Notes under the pieces: generated by a model
The model's database searches: none
What the model was told of the DNA's origin: nothing
The model's input: the letters and a program-made list of their open reading frames with translations, nothing else
Source of the DNA: Candidatus Nanosynbacter sp. HMT-352
GTDB taxonomy: Bacteria; Patescibacteriota; Saccharimonadia; Saccharimonadales; Saccharimonadaceae
NCBI RefSeq assembly: GCF_022819345.1
Contig: NZ_CP089288.1
Location: 1-64,000 of the forward strand
Direction of reading: 5' to 3'
DNA: 64,000 bases
Program-made: the position numbers and the translations under genes
Shown: positions 1,997 to 52,676 of the stretch, piece after piece
Layout: every line of letters begins with the position of its first letter
How positions within the stretch are numbered: position 1 is the first letter of the stretch

Positions 1997-2025
1997 AACT
2001 ACAGTATAGCAAATTATGTTATAAT
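1997..2025. promoter_or_regulatory. Divergent promoters between the pheS operon and the aquaporin gene
   Basis: Minus strand: TATACT at 2003-2008, 6 bases before the ATG at 1996. Plus strand: an extended -10, TGTTATAAT (TATAAT at 2020-2025), followed by a short leader holding an AAGGAGGG Shine-Dalgarno for the gene at 2054. Neither side shows a convincing -35 box. Confidence 0.6.
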
Positions 2026-2053
2026 AGTCGTGATATTACTTTAAGGAGGGAAT

Positions 2054-2989
2054 ATGGCTACGAAGAAAACTTCAAAGAAAGCCCCAGTTAAAGCCGCAGA
2101 AAAGAAAACCGCTGCCGCTAAAACTGAAACCAAAACGACCGTAAAGCGCGTCGTTGCTGAATCTACCGCTAAAAGCAAGCGTGTCGAACTAGATTCTAAA
2201 TTACCAAACAACTTAATTAACATCATTATTGCGGAAGTTATCGGTACGTTCATTTTGACACTTGCCGCATTATTCGCATCAGATATTTTGTCATCAATGT
2301 ACGTCGGTTTTGCGTTGATGTTCATCGTTGCAATCATCGGCAACATTTCTGGCGCACACGTAAACCCAGCTGTCACATTTGGTCTATGGACAATGCGTAG
2401 GCTAAAGACTGTACTTGTTCCATTTTACTGGGGTGCACAATTCCTCGGTGCAATGGCAGCTATCGTGCTTGTTGGTTCATTAACAAACGGCGGATTTGCC
2501 CTAAGCTTCGACCAATTCACTGCGTTCTCTTGGAACATCTTCGCGATGGAATTAGTCGGTACCGCTGTATTTGTATTTGGTATTGCCGCAGTTTTGCAGC
2601 GCAAAGAAATCAAAGCAGCTGGTCAAGCTTTTGGAATTGGCTTGGCATTGATGATTGGTCTTGTCGTATCTGGCTCAATCTCTTCATACATTAAAAGTAC
2701 TGCTATTGCAAAAATCCAAAAAGATCAAAGCACTACTCAAACTGAGAAAAACGGCCGCACTTACCCACGCGAGATCTACATCTCAGGCGCAACTTTGAAC
2801 CCAGCAGTTTCTTTGGCTATTACAGAGAAAACCGACTCTCAACTACGTAGCAACGGAGTATTGCCAGCTGAAGGCGAAAAAAGCTATTCACGCTTTAGTC
2901 TGGAAGTAATTGCCGCTACCCTAATCGGCGCAACATTAGGTGGTAACTTATTTCTACTCGTCAATTACCGAAACAAAGACGAAGAATAG
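2054..2989 (+). CDS. MIP family channel (aquaporin / glycerol facilitator) with basic N-terminal tail
   Basis: This membrane channel passes water or small uncharged solutes. Both hallmark NPA boxes are present: NPAVTF near residue 107 and NPAVSL near residue 249, in a six-helix plus two-half-helix layout. The 311 residues exceed the usual ~230-280. Part of the excess is a Lys/Ala/Thr-rich tail of about 50 residues before the first helix, resembling histone H1 tails. The rest is a hydrophilic insert (~residues 215-240) just before the second NPA. The AAGGAGGG SD, well spaced before ATG 2054, fixes the start. Substrate preference cannot be read with confidence. Confidence 0.92.
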   Translation: MATKKTSKKAPVKAAEKKTAAAKTETKTTVKRVVAESTAKSKRVELDSKLPNNLINIIIAEVIGTFILTLAALFASDILSSMYVGFALMFIVAIIGNISGAHVNPAVTFGLWTMRRLKTVLVPFYWGAQFLGAMAAIVLVGSLTNGGFALSFDQFTAFSWNIFAMELVGTAVFVFGIAAVLQRKEIKAAGQAFGIGLALMIGLVVSGSISSYIKSTAIAKIQKDQSTTQTEKNGRTYPREIYISGATLNPAVSLAITEKTDSQLRSNGVLPAEGEKSYSRFSLEVIAATLIGATLGGNLFLLVNYRNKDEE

Positions 2990-3008
2990 ATTATAACTTC
3001 ACAATAAA

Positions 3009-3038
3009 ATATCCCGCTTAATCGGCGGGGTATTTTTT
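3009..3038 (+). terminator. Intrinsic terminator after the aquaporin gene
   Basis: A 9-bp stem (ATATCCCGC/GCGGGGTAT, one G-T pair), a 7-base loop and a T6 run lie just after the stop. It sits between converging genes and the opposite strand also ends in a T-rich stretch, so it may serve rmuC too. Confidence 0.85.
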
Positions 3039-3041
3039 ATG

Positions 3042-4112
3042 TCAATCTTCCTGAGTCGGCCGATCAATCAGCTCCGGCTGAGCTTGGTTATCTCCACCAG
3101 AAATTCGCACGACATCCTTATCGATCTTCCCCAACTCCTTGTACGTATTGTTGTAATGGCCAACGGTCGTGCTTAAACTCTTGCCCATTTTTGTCATCAG
3201 CTCGTCAAACTTTTTAATGTGAACACCCAATTGCCCAACTCGAACTTGAATATCTTTGGCCTGCTCTTCAATCTGCAAACTACGAAGCCCCTGAAGAACG
3301 GTTTGTAGGTACGCCAGAAAACTAGTCGGACTAACAATAATCACTCGCTTATCTCGAAACGCATATTCAATCAGATCGCGACTCGAACCGCCCTGACCAA
3401 CATTGTTAATCAGAAGATCGTAATACAAAGATTCGCTAGGAATAAACATAAAGGCAAAGTCCATGGTGTTTTCGCGCGGACGAATATATTTACTAGTCTC
3501 GTCAATTCGCCCCTTAAGGTCGGCCTTCACTTTATTTAGCCACATTTCACGCTCGGATTTTGTCTCGGCATTAATCATCCGATTGTAATTCTCCAAAGAA
3601 AACTTACTGTCCACCGGCAATATCTGCCCCTTGTCCAGAAAAATAACCGCATCAACAATTTCACCGTCCTTGAAACGATATTGCATTTGATATTGCTTGG
3701 CTGGCAAAACGTTATCCAGCACGCTTTCCAGATAAAACTCACCAAAAACGCCACGCTGTTTTGGATTTTGCAACACGTTTTGCAAGGTTTTAAGATCAGT
3801 TGCCACATCAACCACACGCTTATTGGTCTCATCCAATTTTGCCAATCGCTGCGTCACATCAGCCACCAACTTCGCGCTTTCTGATAATTGTTTCTGCACG
3901 GAAGTCTGAACTTGCGCGTTACTTCGCTCCAACTTATCACTAACGGATTCATTCAGTTTCGCAATCGTCCGCCCCAATTCCACGACATCGGTTTTAATTA
4001 GCTCGACGGATGATTGATTTTTTAGCTCACTGATTTTTGATTGCAAGACAAATAAAGTCGCACCCAAACCAATAGTAATAACAATTAAGAGAATAATGAT
4101 AATGATTTCCAT
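3042..4112 (-). CDS. rmuC: DNA recombination protein RmuC
   Basis: RmuC is a predicted nuclease-fold protein that limits inversions and rearrangements at repeats. The 356-residue protein starts with one transmembrane helix (~1-24), followed by a coiled coil (~28-115) and the RmuC domain (~118-330) with its typical GVFGEFYLESVL and FMFIPSE stretches. The E. coli protein is longer (about 475), so this is a compact form. A TACACT box 6 bases before the ATG suggests a leaderless message. It is the only gene between convergent aqp and the membrane-protein pair upstream. Confidence 0.92.
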   Translation of the reverse strand: MEIIIIILLIVITIGLGATLFVLQSKISELKNQSSVELIKTDVVELGRTIAKLNESVSDKLERSNAQVQTSVQKQLSESAKLVADVTQRLAKLDETNKRVVDVATDLKTLQNVLQNPKQRGVFGEFYLESVLDNVLPAKQYQMQYRFKDGEIVDAVIFLDKGQILPVDSKFSLENYNRMINAETKSEREMWLNKVKADLKGRIDETSKYIRPRENTMDFAFMFIPSESLYYDLLINNVGQGGSSRDLIEYAFRDKRVIIVSPTSFLAYLQTVLQGLRSLQIEEQAKDIQVRVGQLGVHIKKFDELMTKMGKSLSTTVGHYNNTYKELGKIDKDVVRISGGDNQAQPELIDRPTQED

Positions 4113-4147
4113 ACACTTAGTGTACAGTGATTATAGTGCCAAAACAA
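4113..4147 (-). promoter_or_regulatory. rmuC promoter with small palindrome
   Basis: Minus strand: -35 TTGTTT (4142-4147), a 17-base spacer and -10 TACACT (4119-4124), then 6 bases to ATG 4112. The -10 box is half of the 13-base palindrome TACACTTAGTGTA (4112-4124), a possible operator. The -35 lies in the 3' end of the upstream gene. Confidence 0.6.
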
Positions 4148-4625
4148 CTCGTGCTAAGATTGCGAATAAAGTCATAAATAAAATTGCTGCGCCGTTGCCA
4201 CGAATTCTATTCAACCAGATTAACGACAAATATACCAAAACTGTCGCCAAAACTACCCATAGTAATGACAAAATCCAAGATCCGCCAGCCCATAATGTAG
4301 CACCCCACAATGACACAGTTGCCGCGATTACTACCAACAGAGGTCGCTTAATACCAAATACCGCCAACACTGGAACTAACATAATTCCCGCCAAAACTAA
4401 CGCAACGTAAGATGCGATGCTCGTGCTGTTTGCGCAAATAGAAATATGCTCAGCGTTCGCGCAAAATACGGGTGTAATCATAAATTTATCAAACGCAAGC
4501 GCCAGCAACCAGATAGTCACGCCGCTAGCAACTAAAATCGCCAAAATCCTCAAGAAAACTCGCCTTGAAAATGGATATGTGTAATCTGATATTTCTTCAC
4601 GGAAAATAGCTGACAATAATTTCAT
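4131..4625 (-). CDS. Multipass membrane protein of unknown function
   Basis: From the chosen start (MKLLSAIF) the protein has 164 residues and four to five hydrophobic segments. Cysteines in the first long loop (VFCANAEHISICAN) could form a disulfide outside the membrane. I recognise no family. An earlier in-frame ATG at 4652 exists, but the promoter TTGCAA-17-TACAAT ends 6 bases before the ATG at 4625, which argues for the shorter, leaderless form. Its 5' neighbour is a PAP2 phosphatase. Confidence 0.6.
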   Translation of the reverse strand: MKLLSAIFREEISDYTYPFSRRVFLRILAILVASGVTIWLLALAFDKFMITPVFCANAEHISICANSTSIASYVALVLAGIMLVPVLAVFGIKRPLLVVIAATVSLWGATLWAGGSWILSLLWVVLATVLVYLSLIWLNRIRGNGAAILFMTLFAILARVVLAL

Positions 4626-4631
4626 ACGTAA

Positions 4632-4660
4632 ATTGTAACGTAAACTTGTCAATATTGCAA
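4632..4660 (-). promoter_or_regulatory. Leaderless promoter TTGCAA-17-TACAAT
   Basis: Minus strand: -35 TTGCAA at 4655-4660, a 17-base spacer, -10 TACAAT at 4632-4637, then 6 bases (TTACGT) to the ATG at 4625. There is no room for an SD. Confidence 0.7.
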
Positions 4661-4670
4661 ATGTATATGA

Positions 4671-5204
4671 TTAAATATTATGCTTTTTCAGGAGACTCAT
4701 CGGTTTATACCAAACAATCCCTACGCAGGCAATCAATAATCCGCCAACAACGTCAAGTGGCGTATGTACCAATGCAATAACCCGACCGACACATATTAAG
4801 ATCGTCATAACCAGACAAACAACAGCCAGCCGCCAACTCTTCGCTCCGAAAAATACCGCCAAAGTAATTGCCATTGTAAATAGCGCGTGATCGGACGGAA
4901 AACCCGGATTATTAAGGAATGACGCGCCGGCAGATACACCCAGAATCTCGAACGGGCGCATCTGATCTGGTTGATAAATTGACCCGATAATTTTTGCCGC
5001 CACGTAAGCCGTCAAACCAGCCATCAAAACTTGGCTATAAACTTGATACTTCTCTTTATTTGGAACCAATTTTATCAGCGAGTACGCACCAATTAGCACG
5101 ACTGGCACCACTAGCCCATCAGCAATTAGCTTCACGATCCATTGCAAATCCATATTACCAGTATATCGCGTCAACGCTGGCCAGTAAACGCTTGCGGAAA
5201 TCAT
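4671..5204 (-). CDS. PAP2 superfamily phosphatase (undecaprenyl-diphosphatase-like)
   Basis: This is a membrane acid phosphatase of the PAP2 fold, probably acting on lipid phosphates such as undecaprenyl diphosphate. All three family motifs are visible: a lysine upstream of QMRPFE (K-x6-RP-like), GFPSDHALF (PSGH motif with D for G), and GRVIALVHTPLDVVGG (SRxxxxxHxxxD-like). About five transmembrane helices; 177 residues. An upstream TTG (5219) is in frame, but the TACTAT box at 5211-5216 sits 6 bases before ATG 5204, so that ATG is preferred. The exact substrate is inferred. Confidence 0.8.
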   Translation of the reverse strand: MISASVYWPALTRYTGNMDLQWIVKLIADGLVVPVVLIGAYSLIKLVPNKEKYQVYSQVLMAGLTAYVAAKIIGSIYQPDQMRPFEILGVSAGASFLNNPGFPSDHALFTMAITLAVFFGAKSWRLAVVCLVMTILICVGRVIALVHTPLDVVGGLLIACVGIVWYKPMSLLKKHNI

Positions 5205-5346: not shown

Positions 5347-5748
5347 CATCGATAAATTTGCGCAAATCAGCAAAGCCCACATCACGAATACCAGAAAAAT
5401 CACAGCCGCACTATTCACGTTCTTTATCGTTGCACCAAATATCACCGACACATACCCATTCACAAACGCCAAAAAACTAATTACCGTCATAATCCCCAAA
5501 TTCAAAAAGCCAGCCATTCTACTCGTCAGAGTAATTCTTTTTGACATATCCATATCAATTAAAAACGGCAACGATGTTAGCTCAACAACCACCAATATTA
5601 TCGCAATCGGAAGACTTAAATATGGCGTAATCCCCGCAGAAGTAATGACCGCAGAAAACTTCTCAAACGTAAATAATTGACATAATAATGGCACCATTAT
5701 CAATAGTCCTGTAATCAATTTAACAATTTTATTCACTTTTCTAGACAT
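5329..5748 (-). CDS. Four-helix membrane protein (DoxX-like size)
   Basis: The 139-residue protein has four hydrophobic helices and a basic C-terminus (MKKTAK). Size and layout recall DoxX/MauE-type small membrane proteins, but no diagnostic motif is seen, so it is left as hypothetical. Promoter TTGAGC-17-TATACT (5755-5783) ends 6 bases before the ATG and no SD is present, so it is predicted to be leaderless. Its final codons are shared with the tRNA-Gln terminator. Confidence 0.6.
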   Translation of the reverse strand: MSRKVNKIVKLITGLLIMVPLLCQLFTFEKFSAVITSAGITPYLSLPIAIILVVVELTSLPFLIDMDMSKRITLTSRMAGFLNLGIMTVISFLAFVNGYVSVIFGATIKNVNSAAVIFLVFVMWALLICANLSMKKTAK

Positions 5749-5754
5749 GATTTC

Positions 5755-5783
5755 AGTATAGCTTGCGCGTCAAAAAAGCTCAA
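5755..5783 (-). promoter_or_regulatory. Leaderless promoter TTGAGC-17-TATACT
   Basis: Minus strand: -35 TTGAGC at 5778-5783, -10 TATACT at 5755-5760, then 6 bases to ATG 5748. From 5784 to 5912 I see nothing else recognisable. Confidence 0.65.
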
Positions 5784-5939: not shown

Positions 5940-6595
5940 TTATTGGTCAATATCCGCGATTGTTCAGCGCGCCACTCGGCAATTTTTCCGTGGTGTCCGC
6001 TCAATAAAACATCCGGCACACGTAAACCCTTAAACTCCTCAGGCCGTGTATACTGTGGAAATTCCAACGTTTCTCCATCTGAAAAACTTTCAATTTCCGC
6101 AGATTTTTCGCCGCCCAAAACTCCAGGAATCAACCTAACAATAGAATCAATCATCATCATTGCCGCCAACTCGCCGCCAGTCAGCACAAAATCGCCAATA
6201 CTCCATTGCTCGTCAACCAACTCCAATATTCGCTCATCTACGCCCTCATATCGCCCGCAAATAAATATCACACCCTTATCATTATCGGCTTCTTTCTGAG
6301 CTTTAGCCTGCTTCCAGCGTTGCCCTCGCGGACTCATCAGTACCACTTTCGCTGTTTCATCCTGAGATTTCGCAAATTCTACTGCTTTCCATAACGGCTC
6401 AATCATAAGAAGCATCCCGTCGCCGCCGCCATAAGGAGTATCATCAACTTGACGACGAGGACCCAAACCAAACTCCCGCAAATTCACTGTCGTAAGCTCC
6501 ACTATACCGTCTTTCTGAGCCTTCCACATCATGGAACTATTAAAAACTCCCGTTGTCATTTCTGGGAAAAGCGTAATTACTTGAAACTTTCTCAT
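5927..6595 (-). CDS. trmD: tRNA (guanine37-N1)-methyltransferase TrmD
   Basis: TrmD methylates N1 of G37 in tRNAs reading CNN and some other codons, using S-adenosylmethionine, and so prevents +1 frameshifting. The SPOUT trefoil-knot hallmarks are present: YGGGDGMLLMIEP (~residues 55-67), GRYEGVDERI (~112-121) and SIGDFVLTGGELAAM (~131-145). At 222 residues it lacks part of the usual C-terminal domain (E. coli 255). A TACACT box 7 bases before the ATG, preceded by TGGACA at 18 bases, implies a leaderless message. It stands alone rather than in the usual rpsP-rimM-trmD-rplS operon. Confidence 0.96.
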   Translation of the reverse strand: MRKFQVITLFPEMTTGVFNSSMMWKAQKDGIVELTTVNLREFGLGPRRQVDDTPYGGGDGMLLMIEPLWKAVEFAKSQDETAKVVLMSPRGQRWKQAKAQKEADNDKGVIFICGRYEGVDERILELVDEQWSIGDFVLTGGELAAMMMIDSIVRLIPGVLGGEKSAEIESFSDGETLEFPQYTRPEEFKGLRVPDVLLSGHHGKIAEWRAEQSRILTNKNTP

Positions 6596-6615
6596 CTGTT
6601 ACAGTGTACCAAGTG

Positions 6616-9928: not shown

Positions 9929-9957
9929 TTGACTTTTTATGTCGTTTATGGTAACAT
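9929..9957 (+). promoter_or_regulatory. Leaderless promoter TTGACT-17-TAACAT
   Basis: Plus strand: TTGACT (9929-9934), 17-base spacer, TAACAT (9952-9957), then 7 bases to ATG 9965. Confidence 0.7.
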
Positions 9958-9964
9958 ATGGAAC

Positions 9965-10480
9965 ATGAGTAAAGAACTATCACCAAATAGAGTAGAATCT
10001 AAAAATAAAACAACGGCAGCAGAATTTCCTAAAAAGCTAGGAGGGGTAGCTCTAGCCCTCTCTTTAATAGCTGGAGGCGCTTTCGTATATGCAGCGAGAC
10101 AAGCCAATATGCCCGAGCAAAAACCTAGCACACAAGAAGAGATCGCTCGGTTTGTAGATGACTACAGAGAAGGAACGGCAGACTTGCCTGATGATGCAGT
10201 AGTGGAGACGTTCACTATAGAAGAAGGCGGAAATATAGTTAACGAAACCACCAAACTAGCCAAGGAGAACAACTTTAGCCAAGACGAAATGAATCATCTA
10301 GGCGAAGGTGTTCTAACAAGTGCACAAGCAGTATACGGCTTCAATAAAGAACAAGGAGAAGAGCCTTCATCGTCAGCGAAAGTGCGGGCGGGCGATCAAG
10401 TCATGGCTGCCATTGTAGACGCAAATGGAGACGGCATGCGAGACGTAACAGTACTCGATATAAAACGCTCGCCTAACTAA
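9965..10480 (+). CDS. Membrane-anchored extracytoplasmic protein of unknown function
   Basis: The product has 171 residues: a short basic N-terminus, one transmembrane helix (~residues 25-45, uncleaved-looking, no lipobox), then an acidic outside domain ending with DANGDGMRDVTVLDI. That DxNxDG pattern resembles a single calcium-binding loop (dockerin/EF-like). I recognise no family. The ATG at 9965 is chosen over 9929 because the promoter overlaps the longer form. It converges with leuS and overlaps its 3' end by 8 bases. Confidence 0.6.
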   Translation: MSKELSPNRVESKNKTTAAEFPKKLGGVALALSLIAGGAFVYAARQANMPEQKPSTQEEIARFVDDYREGTADLPDDAVVETFTIEEGGNIVNETTKLAKENNFSQDEMNHLGEGVLTSAQAVYGFNKEQGEEPSSSAKVRAGDQVMAAIVDANGDGMRDVTVLDIKRSPN

Positions 10481-12980
10481 CAATATTCACCAGCTTGCCT
10501 GGAACATAAACCATCTTTTTAGGTGGTTTATTGCTTGTGAACTTCTGGACATTTTCGTCAGCCAGAGCCGCTTCTTCAACACTCTGCTTGTCCATATCAC
10601 TCGACAGTTCAAGTTTCGCACGAAGCTTGCCGTTCACTTGAACTATAATAGTCACCGTATCGCTCTTTAGATATTCTTCGTCCCACTTCGGCCAGTGACC
10701 AACGTGAACCGTATCATCATGACCCATTTCACGCCACAATTCCTCTGTGATATGCGGAGCAAAAGGCGCCAAAATCTGGATCAAACTTTCTAACGCAAAT
10801 CGCCACTCGTCCGACATGTCAATTCCATGCGACTCTTTTATCTTATACAGGCCATTGACCATTTCCATCATCGAAGCCACGGCTGTATTAAACTTCTCAT
10901 CTTCAATGTCGCGAGTAACCTTTTTAATCGTCGAGTGAGTTAATCGCAATAGTTCTTGAGTTGTTTTTTCATCCATCTCGGGAGAACTACTTGGACTATT
11001 ATTCTTATCAACGAGCTCCTGAACCAGATTCCATGCTCGGTTTAAGAATCGATAAGTTCCCGGAACGCCACGAGGATCCCATGGCGCATCCATATCATAA
11101 GGCGCGATGAACATTTCGTAAACTCGCAGCGCATCAGCGCCATATCCACTATCCATAATTTCCATTGGATCAATGACATTGCCCTTAGACTTGGACATTT
11201 TCTGACCGTCTGGGGCCATAATATATGCATTGTACATCATTCGCTTGAAAGGTTCGGGAGTTGGAACGAGACCGAGCTTATAGAAAAATCGCATCCAAAA
11301 ACGACTGTATAACAAGTGAGCCACGGCGTGGTCGGCACCGTTGTAATAATCAACCGGCATCCAATGGTTAATTCTCTCAGGATTCCATGCTTCATTATCA
11401 TTGTGCGGGTCGAGATATCGCAAGAAATACCAGCTAGAGCAAGCATAGCCATCCAAAGTGTCAGTCTCGCGCCGACCTTCTACCCAATTGTCGCCATCAG
11501 GCTTATTTTCTGTAATCGGCACAGTTTTTCCAGTTTCAACATCCACCCATACTCGCACCCAATCATCAACCTGGGCCAAAACGGAAGTATTACCGCCCGT
11601 TGGCTTAAAGTTCTCCACCTCTGGCAAAATCACTGGCAAGCATTCATCAGCCACGGCAATTGGCGCACGACCGTCAACATGAACAATTGGAATCGGAGCG
11701 CCCCAATAGCGCTGACGAGAAATTAACCAATCGCGCATTTTATACGTGGTTTTGCTTCGCCCAGAATTCTGCTGCTCCAGCCACGCAACAATTTGCTCGC
11801 GAGCATCCTCGCTCCTGGTACCGTTGAATTGTCCGGAATTTATCAACTCACCTTCACCAGAATAACAACCAGCATCGGCTGAATGCTCAGGCTTATCAAT
11901 CACCTGGATAATCGGCAAGTCAAATTTTTCAGCAAACGCAAAATCGCGCTCGTCGTGCGCTGGCACCGCCATGACTGCGCCGGTTCCATAGCCACCCAAA
12001 ACATAATCCGCCACCCAAATCGGCAATTTTTGACCATTGACCGGGTTTATGACATAGCTACCAGTAAATACACCTGTTTTCTCTTTATTCTCTTGGCGCT
12101 CAACATCAGATTTTTGTTGCGAAGCTTGGATATACGCTTCAACCTTTTCGCGCGTATCAGAATTGACCAACTGAGTAATCAGAGGATGCTCCGGCGCCAA
12201 AGCTACATACGTCGCGCCAAATAACGTGTCAGGACGAGTTGTGAAAACTGTAATCTTGGAATCTTGACCACTAACCACAAACTCAACTTCCGCGCCAACT
12301 GATCGACCAATCCAATTCTTCTGCATGGTTTTAACCATTTCCGTCCAATCAAGCACATCGGTTGCCTCTAAAATTTCATCTGCATACGCCGTAATTCGGA
12401 AAAACCACTGCTTAAGGTTGCGCTTAGTTACAGGATTACCGCAGCGCCAACATTTGCCACCTTCAACCTGTTCGTTAGCAAGCACCGTGTTATCAGTTTC
12501 ACACCACCATTGTGGCTGCTCTTTTTGATATGCCAAATCGTGCTTATATAATTGCGTAAAAATCCACTGAGTCCATTTGTAATATTCTGGATCAGCTGTA
12601 GAAATTTCTTTTGTCCAATCATAACTAAACCCAAGTCGCTTCAATTGCTCCTTAAAATGAACTTTCGCCTCATCATGCGCTACACGCGGCGTTTTTCCGA
12701 CTTTAATAGCGTAATTTTCAACCGGTAAACCAAAGCTGTCCCAGCCGATTGGATGATAGACATTATAGCCCTGCTGACGCTTGAATCGTGCCTTGATGTC
12801 GGCAAATTGAAAAGTACGACCGTGGCCAATGTGAATTCCCGCCCCCGTAATCCCCGGAAGCATGCTCAAACTGTAATATTTCGGTCGGGTCGTGTCATTA
12901 AAATCAACCGCGTAAGTGCCGTCAGCCTCCCATTTGTTTTGCCATTTTTGTTCAATTTCTGTCGGATTATAGCGTCTCAT
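10473..12980 (-). CDS. leuS: Leucine--tRNA ligase
   Basis: LeuRS charges tRNA-Leu and edits mischarged products. The 835-residue class I synthetase has the HIGH motif as HIGHG (~residue 50), a zinc-binding insert (CETDN...CWRCGN), the CP1 editing domain with TTRPDTLFGATY (~247-258), the KMSKSKGN signature (~residue 620) and a C-terminal tRNA-binding region. Length is close to the bacterial norm (~860). TATAAT lies 7 bases before the ATG with no SD, giving a predicted leaderless message. Two tRNA-Leu genes lie 8 kb away. Confidence 0.98.
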   Translation of the reverse strand: MRRYNPTEIEQKWQNKWEADGTYAVDFNDTTRPKYYSLSMLPGITGAGIHIGHGRTFQFADIKARFKRQQGYNVYHPIGWDSFGLPVENYAIKVGKTPRVAHDEAKVHFKEQLKRLGFSYDWTKEISTADPEYYKWTQWIFTQLYKHDLAYQKEQPQWWCETDNTVLANEQVEGGKCWRCGNPVTKRNLKQWFFRITAYADEILEATDVLDWTEMVKTMQKNWIGRSVGAEVEFVVSGQDSKITVFTTRPDTLFGATYVALAPEHPLITQLVNSDTREKVEAYIQASQQKSDVERQENKEKTGVFTGSYVINPVNGQKLPIWVADYVLGGYGTGAVMAVPAHDERDFAFAEKFDLPIIQVIDKPEHSADAGCYSGEGELINSGQFNGTRSEDAREQIVAWLEQQNSGRSKTTYKMRDWLISRQRYWGAPIPIVHVDGRAPIAVADECLPVILPEVENFKPTGGNTSVLAQVDDWVRVWVDVETGKTVPITENKPDGDNWVEGRRETDTLDGYACSSWYFLRYLDPHNDNEAWNPERINHWMPVDYYNGADHAVAHLLYSRFWMRFFYKLGLVPTPEPFKRMMYNAYIMAPDGQKMSKSKGNVIDPMEIMDSGYGADALRVYEMFIAPYDMDAPWDPRGVPGTYRFLNRAWNLVQELVDKNNSPSSSPEMDEKTTQELLRLTHSTIKKVTRDIEDEKFNTAVASMMEMVNGLYKIKESHGIDMSDEWRFALESLIQILAPFAPHITEELWREMGHDDTVHVGHWPKWDEEYLKSDTVTIIVQVNGKLRAKLELSSDMDKQSVEEAALADENVQKFTSNKPPKKMVYVPGKLVNIVS

Positions 12981-12987
12981 ATCTGTA

Positions 12988-13027
12988 ATTATAGCAAATA
13001 ATCCCGCTCATTACGAACGGGATTATT
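12988..13027 (-). promoter_or_regulatory. Terminator of the 13046 gene fused to the leuS promoter
   Basis: Minus strand: hairpin AATAATCCCG/CGGGATTATT (12997-13027) ends the upstream transcript. TATAAT (12988-12993) starts only three bases later and lies 7 bases before the leuS ATG. Confidence 0.7.
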
Positions 13028-14176: not shown

Positions 14177-15466
14177 TTAATCTTTAAATTGTGAGAAAAA
14201 TTGATTTTTCCTAGCAATCCACTTCGGCGTTTGCCTGACCAAGTATTTATCATCCTCAGTACTATGAAGGTTAATTTTTATAGATTCCTCTAGCCATACG
14301 CCGCCGCTTGAACCCTTAAACAGAGCAACGCCTTCAGATTTCAATTTGTCGCGCACGAAAGACCCAGCCTCGATGGCATTCTTACATTCCTTCACCTGGC
14401 AACCTTTTTGACGAGCGGCCGGCGCCAAATATTGATTAGCTTTCTCACCAACCGTCACAACCCAATCCAACAAATCCGGGCTACAATGAGAACCAAGTTC
14501 AGCGTGAGCTTGCTCGAAAATCCCCTTTAAGCCATTCATATTGCCAAGTACAGCAATTCGCTGCGGAGTCTCAATTCGATACAAAGACTGTAAAGCCGCC
14601 AAGGCAGTCAACGGCGTCGAACTATAGCTATCATCAATCAGCCAAGTATTGTCCGCACCCTTCAGCAAATTCATCCTGCCAGGAAGTGGACGCAAATTTT
14701 CTATACCCTTTTTTATATTCTCCTCAGTTTCACCAAACACATACCCAATAGCTGCCGCCACGATCGCTGGACGAATATTATGCTCGCCGATTAGCTTAAC
14801 ATTGACTTCTAATCCATTAGGGTTTTCTGGCGACATAATAAAGCCGTGATGTCCGTCTTTCAGGGAAAAATTACGATCGTCAAAATTATACTCCGCTACT
14901 GGATCACTTCCGTAAGTAGTGATATTAGGATTTGTCAAAAAGCTAGCAAAACGCCCGTCGATGTCATCACGATTTATCATCGCCATTCGCGAGAAATTCG
15001 CCAGCGAAATCATCTCATTCGCCACTTCCTCCAAGGAATATTCAACCTGCATTCTACCATTCGTCACGGAAGTTACAACCGTAATATCCGGCACAACATA
15101 AGCCTTAAACCAATCATTATAGCCAAGTTCCTTTGGATTAAACTCCTGAACAATCACCTGAACTTCCGGTTTTTCAGCCTTGATTCTCTTCTTTACGGCG
15201 CGCATCACTTTCCACCATTTGAACAAGCCTTTTTCAGGCATTTTCACGCCCATCATCTGAAGGAAAACGTCAGCTTTCGTCTTCGGCTCTTCATTGCGAA
15301 GTTGAATATCAAATTGTTGCGCCAAAACCGTACCGATAGCTATTTTTGCACTAGCCTTTCCAGCGCTACCAGTTATCGCCACAAGCTTCACATCTGGATG
15401 AACAGCAAAAAATTCTCGCACTAATTTTGCTAGTTTTTCTTCCCTCTTTTTTGAAACAGTAACCAT
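14177..15466 (-). CDS. Mur ligase family protein (MurF-like), degenerate P-loop
   Basis: Mur ligases add amino acids to UDP-MurNAc-peptides; MurF adds D-Ala-D-Ala. The 429-residue protein shows the three-domain order: ATP-binding N-terminal part (VAITGSAGKASAK, ~30-42), central part with a DITVVTSVTNGRMQ stretch, and a C-terminal Rossmann domain starting near PQRIAVLGNMNGLK. MurF-like features are WLIDDSYSSTP and RMNLLKG. The Walker A motif reads GSAGKA where GK[TS] is expected, so the metal-coordinating Thr/Ser is replaced by Ala. It may be a divergent or altered enzyme. TATGAT 6 bases before the ATG implies a leaderless message. Confidence 0.75.
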   Translation of the reverse strand: MVTVSKKREEKLAKLVREFFAVHPDVKLVAITGSAGKASAKIAIGTVLAQQFDIQLRNEEPKTKADVFLQMMGVKMPEKGLFKWWKVMRAVKKRIKAEKPEVQVIVQEFNPKELGYNDWFKAYVVPDITVVTSVTNGRMQVEYSLEEVANEMISLANFSRMAMINRDDIDGRFASFLTNPNITTYGSDPVAEYNFDDRNFSLKDGHHGFIMSPENPNGLEVNVKLIGEHNIRPAIVAAAIGYVFGETEENIKKGIENLRPLPGRMNLLKGADNTWLIDDSYSSTPLTALAALQSLYRIETPQRIAVLGNMNGLKGIFEQAHAELGSHCSPDLLDWVVTVGEKANQYLAPAARQKGCQVKECKNAIEAGSFVRDKLKSEGVALFKGSSGGVWLEESIKINLHSTEDDKYLVRQTPKWIARKNQFFSQFKD

Positions 15467-15495
15467 AACTATATCATACCATAAGCATTATAGAA

Positions 15496-15625: not shown

Positions 15626-16324
15626 TCATTTCTCATTTGCATATTCTGGCAAAACTTTCCCAACTAAAACTACCGCCATCAAAACTGCAAATCCACACAT
15701 AATTGACGGAATTCCGATAATAGTCGACGGATCAATGATATTGACAAACGTCGTAGGCGCCATAAATAGAACATATCCCACAATCAACGAACCTAGAGAG
15801 CGCCGAATGTGTTTACTGGAGGTTTTGCTACTAACATATGCATAAGCAATTGCTGCAAATAATAGGCCGTAATAATACAAACCATACCACATTCCGACGC
15901 CCGGCTGGTTTTCAAAAATCACATAATTACCAAGGCAAGCCCCGGACTTAATTCCGTTAGCCTCCAATAGAAAATAGCTAATAAACATTGCGGCAAAAGT
16001 GTAACCAAGCACAGGAATCCACCGCCTCTTATCGCTAGAAATTTTATATATCAAATGAATACCCAGGGGCGGAAGCATAGTAATTGCAATATAGCCAAGT
16101 TTAGCCCAGCCGAGATTATCCAGAAGAATCGCACCTTCACAAACGTTATATTCAGCCCATTGAAACAGCGCTAAACAAATCAACAGCATGATCACAATCT
16201 TCGTCACAGCATTCAATTTATATTTCCAAAAAGTATATATTGCCAGAATAATTTCAATTGTCAACGTCGCCAACATTACCGCTGGAGAGAAACAATAGAG
16301 TCTCGGTTTTTTAATCTTATCCAT
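15626..16324 (-). CDS. Seven-helix membrane protein of unknown function
   Basis: The protein has 232 residues with about seven predicted transmembrane helices and an aromatic- and cysteine-containing third loop. The layout resembles 7TM sensor or lysoplasmalogenase-like modules, including the 7TM input domains of histidine kinases, but no kinase domain follows. The start MDKIKKPRL at 16324 is preferred over the ATG at 16339 because TATAAT (16331-16336) lies 6 bases before it. Confidence 0.55.
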   Translation of the reverse strand: MDKIKKPRLYCFSPAVMLATLTIEIILAIYTFWKYKLNAVTKIVIMLLICLALFQWAEYNVCEGAILLDNLGWAKLGYIAITMLPPLGIHLIYKISSDKRRWIPVLGYTFAAMFISYFLLEANGIKSGACLGNYVIFENQPGVGMWYGLYYYGLLFAAIAYAYVSSKTSSKHIRRSLGSLIVGYVLFMAPTTFVNIIDPSTIIGIPSIMCGFAVLMAVVLVGKVLPEYANEK

Positions 16325-16343
16325 GCGTAAATTATACATTAAT

Positions 16344-20312: not shown

Positions 20313-20318
20313 ATGTTA

Positions 20319-20360
20319 ATTATACCAAAAATCGCCCGCTAAAAATAGACGAGCGATTTT
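20319..20360 (-). promoter_or_regulatory. lemA terminator fused to the htpX promoter
   Basis: Minus strand: terminator hairpin AAAATCGCTCG/CGGGCGATTTT (20328-20360) with a T5 tail, then GG and TATAAT (20319-20324), then 6 bases to the htpX ATG at 20312. Confidence 0.8.
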
Positions 20361-33940: not shown

Positions 33941-33947
33941 TAGATCT

Positions 33948-37125: not shown

Positions 37126-37171
37126 ATTTATATTATACCATCAAGCTCACGCTAATTTACACCAGCAAAAT

Positions 37172-38548
<1,377 letters not shown>

Positions 38549-46231: not shown

Positions 46232-46270
46232 ATTATACCATAAAATAACCCCACCTTATAGATGGGGCTT
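46232..46270 (-). promoter_or_regulatory. rpsP terminator fused to the alaS promoter
   Basis: Minus strand: AA(G)CCCCA/TGGGGTT hairpin (46247-46270, one bulge) ends rpsP. TATAAT (46232-46237) follows and lies 7 bases before the alaS ATG. Confidence 0.7.
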
Positions 46271-48367: not shown

Positions 48368-49521
48368 CGACGAGTCCTCTTCATTTCCGCCTGTACAGCT
48401 TCGATGATAAATTCGCCAACTCGCTTTATATTCTCATCATTGTTCAACTTGCCTAAGGTAAGCCTTAGACTTCCGTCAATCTCTGATTCGCTCAGACCAA
48501 CACTCGCTAGTACATGAGAACGCGTTCCAGAATTAGCCGCGCAAGCACTACCTGTAGCCACTAAAACCCCGCGAGATTCTAATAAAAACACCAATCTTTC
48601 AGCATCAATTCCAGAAAATGATATATTCAAAAAACTCACCAAACTTTTTTTCATATCTGATGATATCAACATGTCAGGAAAAGCCCGCCTCAAATCTTTT
48701 ACCAACTCTTCCCGCAACTTTCGCAGTCGCTTCACTTCGGCAGAACGTCGTTTTTGTGCCAATTCCAAAGCCGTCGCAAACCCAACCACGCCAGCAACGT
48801 TTTCAGTTCCGCTGCGAAGACCCAATTCTTGACCGCCACCAAAAATATTGGCTTTCAGCGTAACACCAGGTCGCACCCACAGTAAACCAACCTGCTTTGG
48901 GCCGTAAACTTTCGCCGCAGATAATGTCAATAAATCAACACCCAGCCTTTTAATCTTCACGTCAATTAAAGCCGCCGCCTGCGAAGCATCTGTATGAAAA
49001 ATCAACGGTAAAGGTTCATCATTTTCTTGGCGCCTTAGTCGCTCAGCTTTTACAATTTCCGCAATTTCTTCAATTGGCTGGATGTAGCCTAGCTCATGAT
49101 TCACCAGCGCAACACTAACAAATCCAACATCTGGCGTTAACATTTTTTTAACCGTGTTCGGGTCTATTCGTCCATTTTTCATTGGCGGAATTAACTTCAC
49201 TTCCGAACACGCTTTTGCAGAGTTGATCACCGAATCATGCTCAATTGCCGAAATTAAACTTACGCCATTTGCTGCATTGAACGCCAAATTGACAGACTCA
49301 GTTGCTCCAGCTGTCATTATTAATTCGTCAGCCATCACGCCCAAGCAGCGCGCCAGCCGAGCCTTCGCGTCTTGATATTCACGCTTTGTAAATATTGCCG
49401 GAGCGTAAGGACTAGACGGATTGAAAAACTTTTCAGAAAAATATGGCAACATCGCCTCAATCACCAATGGATCCATTGGCGTGGCAGCAGCATGATCAAG
49501 ATAGATATAGTCTTTATTCAC
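48364..49521 (-). CDS. Cysteine desulfurase (NifS/IscS family)
   Basis: This PLP enzyme takes sulfur from cysteine for tRNA thiolation and Fe-S clusters. YLDHAAATPMDP (start), TDASQAAALIDV, the PLP lysine in SAAKVYGPKQ (~205) and the catalytic loop with GSACAANSG (~325) are visible. The residue before the lysine is Ala where SxHK is usual, so the PLP-stacking or proton-transfer His is missing at this position. 385 residues, typical. It heads the operon with DUF218 and mnmA. Confidence 0.93.
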   Translation of the reverse strand: MNKDYIYLDHAAATPMDPLVIEAMLPYFSEKFFNPSSPYAPAIFTKREYQDAKARLARCLGVMADELIMTAGATESVNLAFNAANGVSLISAIEHDSVINSAKACSEVKLIPPMKNGRIDPNTVKKMLTPDVGFVSVALVNHELGYIQPIEEIAEIVKAERLRRQENDEPLPLIFHTDASQAAALIDVKIKRLGVDLLTLSAAKVYGPKQVGLLWVRPGVTLKANIFGGGQELGLRSGTENVAGVVGFATALELAQKRRSAEVKRLRKLREELVKDLRRAFPDMLISSDMKKSLVSFLNISFSGIDAERLVFLLESRGVLVATGSACAANSGTRSHVLASVGLSESEIDGSLRLTLGKLNNDENIKRVGEFIIEAVQAEMKRTRR

Positions 49522-49533
49522 TTTTTTATTATA

Positions 49534-49977: not shown

Positions 49978-50273
49978 CTCTCCTTAGTTTTGTATTCACG
50001 TAGGAGTTGGAGTGAATTACCAATTGCCTGCACAGTTTCAAGCGGACTGTTGTTAATGTAGTCAAGACTTTTTCCATAGCTACCAAGTGCTTGATTACAG
50101 AAATCAACCGCCCCATTATCAGCAAAGTCCATCTTAATATCAATCGCAGTCTTCCCCAATTCAGGGTTCACCTTAGAGTTATCGCGTTGCTCGGCGTCAG
50201 AAAAAATAGCAGCAAGTTTTTCGCGAGCTTCAATTTCAGGTGTTTTTGTAACACATTCCGGTGTACTATTCAT
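49968..50273 (-). CDS. Hypothetical protein, about 101 residues
   Basis: A small helical protein (CVTKTPEIEAREKLAAIF near the start) with four cysteines and no transmembrane segment. No family recognised. Start uncertain: ATG 50273 has GGAG 3 bases upstream; GTG 50282 or TTG 50288 (overlapping the tatD stop) are alternatives. It links tatD to the next gene. Confidence 0.5.
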   Translation of the reverse strand: MNSTPECVTKTPEIEAREKLAAIFSDAEQRDNSKVNPELGKTAIDIKMDFADNGAVDFCNQALGSYGKSLDYINNSPLETVQAIGNSLQLLREYKTKESCR

Positions 50274-50284
50274 CTTCTCCACTT

Positions 50285-51103
50285 TCAAATGCCAAAAAGT
50301 TCTTTTGTATTGCGAAGAGTAGCTTGGCTTAAAACATCAAAATCAATATTTCTCTGTTTCGCCCAATATTCAGCCACCACTCTCACATATTCTGGCTTGT
50401 TTATATTACCACGAAACGGCGCTGGTGTCAAGAATGGCGCGTCAGTTTCTAGCAATAATCGCTCCAGCGGAATTGAAGCAAACAATTCTTTCTGCAATTG
50501 ATCCTTTGTGAATGTACTAATTCCATTAAGTCCAACGTACAAATTTCGCGAAAAACCTTTTTCCAAATTTTCACGCGTATCAGTAAAGCTATGTAGTGCG
50601 CCGCGAAGCCCGTGAAAATTGTCAAAAATTGGCCAAAAATCATCCCAAACCGACGGCTGATCCTTCGCACCATCACGAACATGAAAACTTACCGGCAAAT
50701 CGTAATCAATCGCCATTTGAAGTTGCGCCTCCAAGCCTTCAATTTGCGTTTCCCGCGGACTGTTATTGTAATAATAATCAAGCCCAATTTCACCAATTGC
50801 CACAATCGGAGAATTTTCCGTCTTATTCTCCAGCAAAGTTTTGACATCTCCCCAGCCATCTTTCGTATCGTGCGGATGAACGCCAATTGCCGCCCAAGTA
50901 AACTTATGATTCGCGGCAAATTCCACAGCTTGGCGGCTACTTCGCTGGTCAGTACCGACACAAATCATGCCAATATTCGCCTCGACCGTTTCTTTGTAAA
51001 ACCTCTCACGATTGTCCGTAAAAAATTCTGTATCGTGCAAATGACAATGCGAATCTATCAGACGTAAGCCCTCAGTCGCACTTTTCTTATCAGCCTCAAT
51101 CAT
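50285..51103 (-). CDS. tatD: TatD family metal-dependent hydrolase (DNase)
   Basis: The TIM-barrel hydrolase has the family motifs: LIDSHCHLHD (metal His pair, ~17-26), IGEIGLDYY (~105-113, catalytic Glu), SFHVRDG (His), and LLETDAPFLTP (~220, final Asp). 272 residues is typical. The stop is TGA, supporting the standard code. It starts three bases after metG ends. Confidence 0.95.
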   Translation of the reverse strand: MIEADKKSATEGLRLIDSHCHLHDTEFFTDNRERFYKETVEANIGMICVGTDQRSSRQAVEFAANHKFTWAAIGVHPHDTKDGWGDVKTLLENKTENSPIVAIGEIGLDYYYNNSPRETQIEGLEAQLQMAIDYDLPVSFHVRDGAKDQPSVWDDFWPIFDNFHGLRGALHSFTDTRENLEKGFSRNLYVGLNGISTFTKDQLQKELFASIPLERLLLETDAPFLTPAPFRGNINKPEYVRVVAEYWAKQRNIDFDVLSQATLRNTKELFGI

Positions 51104-51106
51104 AAA

Positions 51107-52618
51107 CTATTTAACCTGAGATTCTGTTTTCGGAGCGCGTGGATCTGGCGTGTGAATATATTTGCGCGGGAACAAAGGCATCAATTCTGACGGCACGACA
51201 CCACTAGCAAACATATCATGAATTTTCTCGGCAGTTTGCGGCATAAATGGACGAAGCATGTCAGATACTTGCAATAATGTGCCACAAGCGTGCGCCAAAA
51301 TCTCGCTCAAATGCGACTCCGCCTCTGGATCTTTATCGCGATTTTTAGCAACTTGCCAAGGCTGGACTCGCTCGATATATTGATTCAAAGAGCGAACAAT
51401 TAGCCAAATTTCGTCCATTGCTTGATCGAACATATAACTTTCCATCGCCTGACGATACGGTCCCATGTCGTGCTCTGATTGTGGAGCGTCGCCAATAACG
51501 CCCGCTTGATAACTCTGCACCATTTTAGCAACTCGCTGAACCAAATTGCCCAAATCATTGCCAAGCTCACCATTATACGCAGCTTCAAACTTTTCCCAAG
51601 TAAAGTCACCATCATCTTGCGTCGGTACGTGGCGCAGGAAATAATATCGGAACGCCTCAGCGCCGTAATCTGGAATAATGTCAGTCGGGCCAACACCATT
51701 TCCGAGACTCTTTGACATTTTCATTCCGCCAGAATTGATAAATCCATGAACAAGTAGAACCTTCGGAAGTGGTAAATCTAGCGCCATGAGCATTGCTGGC
51801 CAAATACCAGCGTGGAAGCGGAGAATGTCCTTGCCGATAACTTGCACGTCAGCCGGCCAGAATGATTGCCACTCTTCTGGACGGTCAGGATAACCAATAA
51901 CCGTAATGTAATTACTCAGAGCATCCAACCAAACGTACATGACTTGATTATCATCGCCAGGAACCGGCACGCCCCAGCTAAGATTTTTACGTGGACGAGA
52001 AACCGACACATCTTTCAAGCCATCTTTCATCAATTCCAAAAACTCTTTTTTACGGAATTCAGGCACGATTCTCATTTTATTTGACTCAATCGCCTGACGA
52101 ATATTGTCCGAAAAAGCACTGGTTTTAAAATAATAATTTTCCTCACTCAAGCGCTGATACGGCGTCTGGTGATCTGGACAAACCCCATTATTGTCAGCAG
52201 CTTCTTTATCCGTAACGAAAGCTTCGCAACCCTGACAATACCAGCCTTCATATGAACCCTTGTAAATGTAACCAGCCTCAACGAGTTTCTGCCAAATATA
52301 CTGCACCGCAGCAACGTGATGCGCGTCAGTTGTTCGAATAAAATCCGTCACTGAAATATTCAGCTCATTAATCATCTTCTTAAAATTAACGTGCGTCTGA
52401 TCGACGTATTCTTGAGGGGTTTGATTTTGGCTAGCAGCTTTGGCGGCAATTTTATTGCCATGCTCATCTACACCAGCTTGAAAACGAACCTCACGACCGT
52501 TTTGTCTGGAATATCGCGCCCACACATCTGCCAACATATAATCCATAGCATGCCCAATGTGCGGCAAGCCGTTTACGTAAGGAATAGCGGTAGTGATGTA
52601 AGCGTGTTTCTTAGTCAT
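51107..52618 (-). CDS. metG: Methionine--tRNA ligase
   Basis: The class I synthetase has ITTAIPYVNGLPHIGHAM (HIGH motif, ~residue 18), a zinc knuckle CQGCE...CPDH and KMSKS (SGGMKMSKSLGN, ~300). At 503 residues it lacks the C-terminal EMAP-like dimerisation domain of longer MetRS. Promoter TATAAT lies 6 bases before the ATG, with TTGGTC 18 bases upstream, so it is leaderless. Confidence 0.97.
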   Translation of the reverse strand: MTKKHAYITTAIPYVNGLPHIGHAMDYMLADVWARYSRQNGREVRFQAGVDEHGNKIAAKAASQNQTPQEYVDQTHVNFKKMINELNISVTDFIRTTDAHHVAAVQYIWQKLVEAGYIYKGSYEGWYCQGCEAFVTDKEAADNNGVCPDHQTPYQRLSEENYYFKTSAFSDNIRQAIESNKMRIVPEFRKKEFLELMKDGLKDVSVSRPRKNLSWGVPVPGDDNQVMYVWLDALSNYITVIGYPDRPEEWQSFWPADVQVIGKDILRFHAGIWPAMLMALDLPLPKVLLVHGFINSGGMKMSKSLGNGVGPTDIIPDYGAEAFRYYFLRHVPTQDDGDFTWEKFEAAYNGELGNDLGNLVQRVAKMVQSYQAGVIGDAPQSEHDMGPYRQAMESYMFDQAMDEIWLIVRSLNQYIERVQPWQVAKNRDKDPEAESHLSEILAHACGTLLQVSDMLRPFMPQTAEKIHDMFASGVVPSELMPLFPRKYIHTPDPRAPKTESQVK

Positions 52619-52676
52619 AGGTAAATTATAGCAAATTCAACAGATCATGACCAATGATAAAGGGCGCTAATTGATG

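What the first reader, a model, noticed from the sequence alone, without database searches (positions are those of the whole stretch)
1997..52630. Widespread leaderless promoters: -10 box exactly 6-7 bases before the ATG
At least twenty genes have a TATAAT-like hexamer ending 6 or 7 bases before the start codon and no SD: 1996, 4112, 4625, 5204, 5748, 6595, 9965, 12980, 15466, 16324, 20312, 23872, 25500, 25903, 26689, 28351, 30360, 33948, 37125, 38494, 46224, 52618. Several also have a -35 at exactly 17 bases. Transcription would start at or next to the A of ATG. Operon-internal genes and most secreted-protein genes instead carry strong SDs. This also corrects several over-long starts.
Basis: partly seen in the sequence, partly recalled or inferred. 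Interest (0 to 1): 0.72.

Follow-up and report, generated by a model that had tools for sequence, protein, structure and literature searches.

The report
Leaderless genes throughout Saccharibacteria
In this tiny bacterium many genes seem to have their promoter so close to the start codon that the message should begin at the very first codon; the pattern is strong and shared by relatives, and it is a known way of starting genes for which I found no report in this group.

Summary
The window is from a Saccharibacterium (TM7), close to OX335598.1. Of the 22 listed sites 15 are strict, 7 weak, and one start (5204) is probably wrong (5153 fits better). The SD motif scan found none.

Leaderless transcription is well supported by sequence. 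At 6 bases, the base before ATG is a pyrimidine in 94% of 130 cases. TGn precedes 57% of these hexamers, against 7% inside genes. Starts fixed by protein homology keep the box in 63 of 90 orthologues; shuffles give 4.9. The signal is rare at operon-internal genes (3 of 89). Whole-genome counts extend it to most sampled Saccharibacteria and, patchily, to other CPR lineages. The claim about secreted genes is not supported.

Leaderless bacterial genes are a known kind; I found none reported for Saccharibacteria in the library searched. The compactness stands out: about 15 bases hold a promoter, some promoters abut the upstream terminator, and two divergent pairs have 14 bp between ATGs. No RNA 5'-end data were available.

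The parts
1996..2008 (-). TATACT, 6 bases, ATG (78-aa ORF, no Pfam match)
   Evidence: strict, TGC before the hexamer
4112..4124 (-). weak -10 TACACT, d=6, ATG of an RmuC-family gene
   Evidence: 4/6; orthologue in L148 has TATACT, six bases, ATG at the same start; Pfam
4625..4637 (-). TACAAT, 6 bases, ATG (164 aa, no Pfam match)
   Evidence: strict
5153..5165 (-).
   Evidence: L148 homologue has TATACT, six bases, ATG two codons from the aligned position; Pfam
5748..5760 (-). TATACT, 6 bases, ATG; -35 TTGAGC at 17
   Evidence: strict
6595..6608 (-). weak extended -10 TGG-TACACT, d=7, ATG of tRNA (guanine-1) methyltransferase; -35 TGGACA at 17
9952..9965 (+). weak extended -10 TGG-TAACAT, d=7, ATG; -35 TTGACT at 17
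12980..12993 (-). TGC-TATAAT, 7 bases, ATG of leucyl-tRNA synthetase
   Evidence: strict; the one orthologue with an aligned start lacks the box
13001..13023 (-). terminator-like hairpin whose T-tract runs into the leuS promoter
15466..15478 (-). TGG-TATGAT, 6 bases, ATG of a Mur-ligase-family gene
   Evidence: strict
16324..16336 (-). TATAAT, 6 bases, ATG (HisKA_7TM domain)
   Evidence: strict
20312..20324 (-). TGG-TATAAT, 6 bases, ATG of an M48 peptidase
   Evidence: strict
20331..20357 (-). terminator-like hairpin joined to the 20312 promoter
23872..23885 (-). TATAAT, 7 bases, ATG (Phage_holin_4_2 family); -35 TCGACA at 17
   Evidence: strict; the one orthologue with an aligned start lacks the box
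25500..25513 (-). poor candidate: TGTAAT, d=7, ATG of uvrC
   Evidence: 3 of 6 orthologues with an aligned start have a strict -10 at d=6-11
25903..25914 (-). poor candidate: TATATG, d=5, DUF488 gene
   Evidence: the one orthologue with an aligned start has an SD instead
26689..26701 (-). TATAAT, 6 bases, ATG (HD domain)
   Evidence: strict
28351..28363 (-). TACAAT, 6 bases, ATG of a Fur-family regulator
   Evidence: strict; kept in L027
30348..30360 (+). TGC-TATAAT, 6 bases, ATG of a VTT-domain membrane protein
   Evidence: 9 of 10 orthologues keep a -10 at d=6-11; Pfam
33935..33948 (+). weak extended -10 TGT-TACAGT, d=7, ATG; -35 TTGCAA at 17
37125..37137 (-). TGG-TATAAT, 6 bases, ATG of exonuclease I (Exonuc_X-T_C)
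   Evidence: of 19 orthologues 6 have a -10, 2 an SD, 11 neither
38494..38506 (-). TGG-TATACT, 6 bases, ATG of obg
   Evidence: 27 of 33 orthologues keep a -10 at d=6-11
38513..38540 (-). terminator-like hairpin whose T-tract leads into the obg extended -10
   Evidence: same join found by the scan in L002, L003, L005, L013, L026, L036
46224..46237 (-). TGG-TATAAT, 7 bases, ATG of alanyl-tRNA synthetase
   Evidence: 16 of 17 orthologues keep a -10 at d=6-11
46249..46267 (-). terminator-like hairpin upstream of the alaS promoter
49521..49533 (-). TATAAT, 6 bases, GTG of an aminotransferase class-V gene (non-ATG case)
52618..52630 (-). TGC-TATAAT, 6 bases, ATG of methionyl-tRNA synthetase
   Evidence: strict
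59467..59479 (-). TAAAAT, 6 bases, ATG of a UvrD helicase; only 4 bases behind the upstream gene, so possibly chance

Best explanation
Many transcription units in this Saccharibacterium start without a 5' leader. A housekeeping-type promoter, usually an extended -10 (TGnTATAAT) with little or no -35, sits so that RNA polymerase starts on the A of the start codon (hexamer, six bases, ATG) or one to a few bases away. The mRNA would be read by initiation at a 5'-terminal AUG. Genes inside operons cannot start this way and use an SD or neither signal; the 16S rRNA keeps its anti-SD, so both modes coexist. The layout saves space: about 15 bases hold a complete promoter, and the upstream gene's terminator can abut it. 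Shown by sequence: position, promoter grammar, -1 pyrimidine, conservation and operon position. Inferred: the 5' ends, the mode of translation and the benefit of compactness.
For: (1) Position: window 17 of 99 ATG candidates against a shuffled mean of 1.49; relative G001, 322 ORFs in 321 kb: d=6 42, d=7 18, background about 3.7-3.9 per distance; 42 loci from other bacteria show no peak at d=6-11 (7, 3, 3, 2, 4, 2). (2) Start-site mark: at d=6 the base before ATG is C or T in 98% of 55 (window+G001) and 94% of 130 (all Saccharibacteria stretches used), against 43% of 63 SD starts and 48% of 333 others in window+G001, and 54% of 142 and 56% of 727 in the other Saccharibacteria. (3) Promoter grammar: TGn before 186 of 326 hexamers at d=6-9 against 7% of 2995 inside genes; TTG with a 17-base spacer 13% against 2%, and 19% where TGn is absent. 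(4) Starts fixed without the promoter: 63 of 90 orthologous starts have a strict -10 at d=6-11, base-shuffled upstream DNA 4.9; alaS 16/17, obg 27/33, VTT gene 9/10. (5) Operon logic, window+G001: gap under 15, leaderless 3 and SD 34 of 89; gap 15-60, 33 and 10 of 71; gap 60 or more, 25 and 25 of 115; divergent, 33 and 18 of 94; same trend in 783 ORFs of other Saccharibacteria. (6) Whole genomes: TATAAT-N6-ATG 661 against 180 for N14 in 16 genomes of the Saccharibacteria side; 668 against 482 in 20 others (N14 sums added by hand).
Against: No RNA data: no 5' end was seen. In relatives the spacing spreads over 6-11. The -1 pyrimidine is also raised at d=9-11 (78-80% of 61, 28 and 18 cases) though less at d=7-8 (72%, 60%), so part of that bias may not mark +1 itself. 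Deep ATGs inside genes show a codon-phase ripple with 25 hexamers at d=7 (of 2525 ATGs), so d=7 is a less clean signal than d=6. About half of the ORFs (188 of 369, window+G001) show neither a strict -10 at d=6-9 nor an SD-like 5-mer. Two of the 16 genomes show hardly any N6 excess (G182 11 against 9, G184 25 against 23). Exonuclease I keeps the box in only 6 of 19 orthologues. GTG starts are not rare in other Saccharibacteria at d=6/7 (17, with 134 ATG; the non-start ATT gives 14). Window and G001 share orthologous genes, so the two are not independent. ORF sets were chosen mechanically, without annotation.
Confidence: 0.87

Rival explanations
1. Near-leaderless: transcription starts 1-5 bases upstream of the ATG, giving very short leaders rather than none.
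For: The spacing peak in relatives covers d=6-11; at d=9 the seventh base after the hexamer is a purine in 73% of 61.
Against: In the window and G001 the peak is at d=6, where -1 is a pyrimidine in 98% of 55. At d=9 the base before that purine is not pyrimidine-rich (46%), while the base before the ATG is (80%).
Confidence: 0.3
2. The box is an A+T-rich translation signal (S1-type or Bacteroidota-type), not a promoter.
For: AT-rich upstream biases have been linked to S1 binding (PMC5397173, passages read), and an S1 protein is present.
Against: TGn at 57% against 7% and TTG at a 17-base spacer, terminators abutting the box, and near absence from operon-internal genes are promoter traits. A translation signal would serve internal genes too.
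Confidence: 0.04
3. A chance product of AT-rich upstream DNA and of choosing the ATG nearest to a TATAAT.
Against: Shuffles, low counts at other distances and at out-of-frame ATGs, spacing-swapped whole-genome counts, starts fixed by homology.
Confidence: 0.01
4. The promoters are real, but transcripts from many of them are translated from a later in-frame start, so the leaderless ATG is not used.
For: No peptide data; translation was not tested.
Against: Orthologous proteins align from the first residue (alaS 17, obg 33, VTT gene 10 counted), so the N-terminus appears to be under selection.
Confidence: 0.05

Closest known systems
Leaderless genes in bacteria found by TA-like (TANNNT) signals about 10 bp upstream of the start (Zheng et al. 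2011, PMC3160421; passages read)
   Same: Pribnow box at a like distance, given there as the mark of leaderless genes; [quoted passage not shown]
   Different: The bacterial groups listed in the passages read (953 genomes) name no Saccharibacteria or CPR; averages there are 19.2% of genes in Actinobacteria and 39.4% in Deinococcus-Thermus. Here an extended -10 is prominent.
Leaderless transcriptomes of Mycobacterium (PMC3898074, PMC4633059; titles and abstract starts seen in a search listing)
   Same: A large share of genes leaderless beside SD-led genes.
   Different: Mycobacteria have mapped 5' ends; here only sequence.
Bidirectional promoters with symmetrical -10 elements in E. coli (PMC12825309; passages read)
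   Same: Two opposed -10 elements overlap in a few bases between divergent genes (L016, L035, L093).
   Different: Predicted start sites here are 15 and 21 bp apart (commonest there 18, also 10 and 23, small variations possible), and both transcripts would be leaderless coding mRNAs, so the promoter is the whole intergenic region.

Membership tests
Bacterial leaderless genes | -10-like TANNNT box at the distance that puts +1 at the start codon, above chance | tested here: met
Bacterial leaderless genes | No SD upstream | tested here: met
   no SD-like 4-5-mer at 22 of 22 listed sites
Bacterial leaderless genes | Primary transcript 5' end at the start codon | not testable with these tools
   no RNA data held; -1 pyrimidine bias is indirect support
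Bacterial leaderless genes | Restricted to first genes of transcription units | tested here: met
   3 of 89 at gap under 15 against 33 of 94 divergent (window+G001); 10 of 208 against 88 of 248 (other Saccharibacteria); operons themselves inferred from gaps
Bacterial leaderless genes | AUG preferred as start (recalled) | tested here: met
   strict -10 at d=6/7: 76 ATG, 2 GTG, 7 TTG, 9 ATT (window+G001); 134 ATG, 17 GTG, 5 TTG, 14 ATT, 3 CTG (other Saccharibacteria); ATT and CTG serve as background
Extended -10 promoters | TGn directly before the hexamer, with a weaker -35 | tested here: met
   186 of 326 with TGn against 7% of 2995 inside genes; TTG at 17 in 9% with TGn and 19% without
Bidirectional promoters with symmetrical -10 | Opposed overlapping -10 elements with divergent starts about 18 bp apart | tested here: inconclusive
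   14-bp pairs in L016 and L035 and a 20-bp pair in L093 have the elements; predicted start distances are 15 and 21 bp; transcription untested
S1- or AT-rich-signal initiation (Bacteroidota type) | AT-rich box acting in translation, independent of promoter position | tested here: not met
   promoter grammar and near absence at operon-internal genes

The most novel reading that the evidence does not exclude
Leaderless initiation is an old and widespread default for transcription-unit starts across much of the CPR (Patescibacteria). Paired with extended -10 promoters, it shrinks a complete intergenic region to about 15 bases, down to divergent gene pairs whose entire 14-bp intergenic region is two overlapping promoters for two leaderless mRNAs. 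Some CPR lineages then reverted to SD.
Probability: 0.4. Interest if true: 0.68.

Novelty: new member of a known kind. Interest (0 to 1): 0.5.

Why it matters
CPR bacteria are a large part of bacterial diversity, and their gene expression is hardly tested. If about a fifth of their genes are leaderless (the excess at d=6-11 was 0.15-0.27 per ORF in five Saccharibacteria samples), gene finders tuned to SD sites may misplace many starts, reporters and genetic tools for Saccharibacteria could use leaderless promoter fusions, and a group with reduced ribosomes becomes a test case for how 5'-terminal AUGs are chosen. The 15-base promoter suggests one concrete way that streamlined genomes save space.

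Tried and rejected
The window's own genome could not be used, so G001 (OX335598.1, 98% identical Obg; 93-95% identical DNA in the blastn pieces with L018) stood in. The claim that secreted genes prefer SDs was tested with a crude N-terminal hydrophobicity score and did not hold: window+G001 24 of 94 leaderless against 19 of 87 SD, p=0.60; other Saccharibacteria 38 of 207 against 46 of 171, p=0.06. A link to a changed 16S tail was rejected: CCTCC is intact in 4 of 5; the fifth (L084) has other sequence at that place, possibly an insertion. A link to missing factors was rejected: IF3 39 of 41, YchF 38 of 41; bS21 matches weakly (35 of 41, 20 over the cut-off), bearing unknown. The 18-bp divergent pair in L015 was set aside, because homology places the uvrC start 18 bases further in. 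The reversed-pattern control of the genome search was judged poor (different words), so the N14 spacing was used; N14 is itself not neutral (G051 5 against 19 and G098 11 against 34 have more N14 than N6; 4 of 116 genomes lean that way at p above 0.99). In 10 other CPR genomes sampled (40 kb each) the excess was strong in one (G087, 0.33 per gene), 0.02-0.14 in seven and absent in G104 and G068; their -1 pyrimidine share was 21 of 32, weaker than in Saccharibacteria, and TGn 12 of 32 against 36 of 726 inside genes.

Rows dropped or chosen: the call-34/38 comparison used 36 of the 79 loci (20 of the 42 non-CPR, 16 of L001-L037). Of L001-L037, 10 carry record titles other than Saccharibacteria/TM7 (for example 'bacterium', 'Nomurabacteria'); 6 of these 10 were in the Obg tree and fell in the 25-row clade that holds the named Saccharibacteria. 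Of 72 phylum-sample genomes with an Obg match, loci were fetched for 30, and these are the ones in the tree. The homology test asked for 11 sites, 10 gave rows, and only alignments starting at residue 1 on a start codon were counted; its control, and that, shuffle single bases. Of the four terminator joins in G001 at least two (obg in L018, leuS in L094) are the same loci as in the window.

Full report
What the window is. The Rfam family lysM-TM7 (120.4 bits, cut-off 61.5) lies at 39684-39823, and the Obg protein is 98% identical to TM7 oral taxon 352 and to OX335598.1, with colinear DNA at 93-95% in L018. It is a Saccharibacterium with 43.7% G+C. No whole genome is held for it, so I used OX335598.1 (G001) as a near stand-in and other loci for breadth.

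The observation. I defined a strict -10 as TA...T with at least five matches to TATAAT and measured the distance d to in-frame ATGs. The window has 13 at d=6 and 3 at d=7, against 0.89 per distance elsewhere. With a slightly wider ORF set, 17 of 99 candidate ATGs have one at d=6/7; 1000 dinucleotide shuffles gave mean 1.49 and maximum 6. Fifteen of the 22 listed sites are strict, seven are weak, none shows an SD-like motif. Position 5204 should probably be 5153: it has TATACT at d=6, and a homologue with about 50% identity has the same layout two codons away.

Wider samples. G001, 322 ORFs in 321 kb: 42 at d=6, 18 at d=7, 10 at d=8, 12 at d=9, against 3.7-3.9. Loci L001-L037: 46, 28, 28, 36, 15, 15 at d=6 to 11, and 3 to 9 at every other distance from 0 to 30; 42 loci from other bacteria have no such peak and a rise near 18-19. 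Out-of-frame ATGs show no peak; ATGs deep in genes show only a codon-phase ripple, whose highest value (25) is at d=7. The mode at 6 is sharpest near the window; other Saccharibacteria spread to 8-9.

Why promoters, and why leaderless. Among 326 such hexamers (d=6-9) in Saccharibacteria, 57% carry TGn directly upstream against 7% of 2995 hexamers inside genes; TTG at a 17-base spacer is at 13% against 2%, and is commoner where TGn is missing (19% against 9%). For d=6 the base before the ATG is a pyrimidine in 98% of 55 cases in window+G001 and 94% of 130 overall, against 43-48% for SD and other starts in window+G001 and 54-56% in the other Saccharibacteria. A pyrimidine at -1 and a purine at +1 is the usual start-site preference (recalled), so this points to transcription starting on the A. 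Against a simple reading, the -1 pyrimidine is also raised at d=9-11 (78-80%) and lower at d=7-8 (72%, 60%). Start codons in window+G001 are nearly all ATG (76, with 2 GTG and 7 TTG; 9 for the non-start ATT); in other Saccharibacteria GTG reaches 17 with 134 ATG and 14 ATT.

Starts fixed without the promoter. Proteins from the window were aligned to Saccharibacteria-side DNA, leaving out L001, L018 and the G001 stretches L085-L099; where the alignment began at residue 1 on a start codon, 63 of 90 starts had a strict -10 at d=6-11, against 4.9 in base-shuffled DNA; 5 had an SD instead and 22 neither. AlaS 16 of 17, Obg 27 of 33, VTT gene 9 of 10; uvrC 3 of 6, exonuclease I only 6 of 19, LeuS 0 of 1. 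In L003 and L036 exonuclease I has a strong SD instead, so the mode can differ between relatives.

Operon logic. In window+G001, genes within 15 bases of an upstream same-strand gene carry a leaderless signal in 3 of 89 and an SD in 34 of 89; with a gap of 15-60 it is 33 and 10 of 71; with 60 or more 25 and 25 of 115; divergent genes 33 and 18 of 94. Other Saccharibacteria agree (10 and 66 of 208; 61 and 20 of 134; 48 and 46 of 193; 88 and 39 of 248). The leaderless class was called first, so SD counts exclude it. N-terminal hydrophobic segments do not separate the classes, so the statement about secreted genes fails in this test. One contrast remains: the LysM/CHAP gene at 38555 sits behind a structured lysM-TM7 leader with an AAGGAG.

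Compactness. Same-strand leaderless genes often begin 15-30 bases after the upstream stop (one search lists the gaps). A terminator-like hairpin and T-tract lies in the 45 bases before the -10 in 4 of 14 same-strand cases in the window (shuffles 0.2), 4 of 31 in G001 (0.1; at least two are the same loci as in the window) and 9 of 73 in other Saccharibacteria (0.8), so it is real but a minority. At obg the scan finds this join in the window, L018, L002, L003, L005, L013, L026 and L036; by eye it also appears in one distant CPR genome, G147. Of 171 divergent pairs, 26 have leaderless signals on both sides (d=6-9). In L016 and L035 a RarA-like AAA ATPase and an alpha/beta hydrolase (names by inspection; the Pfam did not run) have 14 bp between their ATGs, with two opposed -10 boxes sharing two bases; the 14 bp differ between the two while both boxes are kept, and both proteins align from residue 1. 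L093 has a 20-bp pair. E. coli bidirectional promoters have start distances of 18, also 10 and 23 bp (PMC12825309, passages); here they would be 15 and 21.

Distribution. Whole-genome counts of TATAAT-N6-ATG against TATAAT-N14-ATG: 661 against 180 in 16 genomes of the Saccharibacteria side (two of them, G182 and G184, with hardly any excess) and 668 against 482 in 20 other genomes. In 116 genomes drawn from the phylum: 2652 against 1335, 23 genomes with p under 0.001 for an N6 excess. Twelve of those 23 are in an Obg tree of 54 rows; ten of the twelve fall outside the clade with the named Saccharibacteria, in two other groups of the tree. Two sampled genomes that pair in that tree (G068, G104) show no signal and SD-like motifs in 50% and 46% of ORFs. 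Strict -10 boxes at d=6-11 precede obg in 9 of the 29 other phylum-sample loci examined.

Translation machinery. The 16S tail reads GGATTACCTCCTTTCT in 4 of 5 relatives. IF3 is found in 39 of 41, S1 domains in 21 of 21, with four in one reading frame in 19 of 21 by my count, YchF in 38 of 41. PMC12641178 (passages) says that YchF is broadly conserved and promotes leaderless mRNA translation. bS21 matches weakly near the window. Nothing here demands a special ribosome.

Known or new. Zheng et al. 2011 (PMC3160421, passages) set out this kind of gene, its box and its operon logic; StartLink (PMC9581028, passages) reports 21.6% of bacterial species as predicted leaderless users. Searches for leaderless with Saccharibacteria, Patescibacteria, candidate phyla radiation, Parcubacteria and further CPR names gave no paper that reports it in these bacteria: of those I opened, PMC7441243, PMC10434106 and PMC6851277 hold the word only in reference titles, and PMC12641178 speaks of YchF. 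One search counted 4 papers and listed 3, searches listed only their top rows, PMC13361665 was not opened, and subscription papers and preprints are not held. The GeneMarkS-2 paper (Lomsadze et al. 2018) was not read. I therefore file it as a new member of a known kind, with the compact promoter layout as the interesting part.

Noticed in passing
window 39684-39823, - strand: A lysM-TM7 cis-regulatory RNA (120.4 bits) overlaps the mechanically called start of the LysM/CHAP gene 38555-39739, so the true start probably lies after it; the gene looks leadered with an AAGGAG, unlike its leaderless neighbours.
   Followed up: partly
L016 around 17093-17108 and L035 around 12461-12476: Divergent RarA-like and alpha/beta-hydrolase genes with only 14 bp between ATGs, filled by two opposed overlapping -10 boxes; the sequence differs but both boxes are kept.
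   Followed up: partly
L093:5121-7630 and G001 matches: OX335598.1 shows several broken frames (an aminopeptidase-like gene in pieces; short IF3, YchF and S1 frames), which may be sequencing indels rather than biology.
   Followed up: no
L084, 16S 3' end: In L084 (relative G004) other sequence stands where the anti-SD should be; insertions in CPR rRNA genes are reported (PMC11270868, listing only).
   Followed up: no
relatives of G001: Ribosomal protein bS21 matches weakly (below the cut-off, match mostly starting at profile position 9-11) in G001 and several relatives, but above it in G028-G037.
   Followed up: no
exonuclease I start in L003 and L036: The same gene is leaderless-type in the window and SD-led in these relatives, a natural pair for studying how initiation mode switches.
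   Followed up: partly
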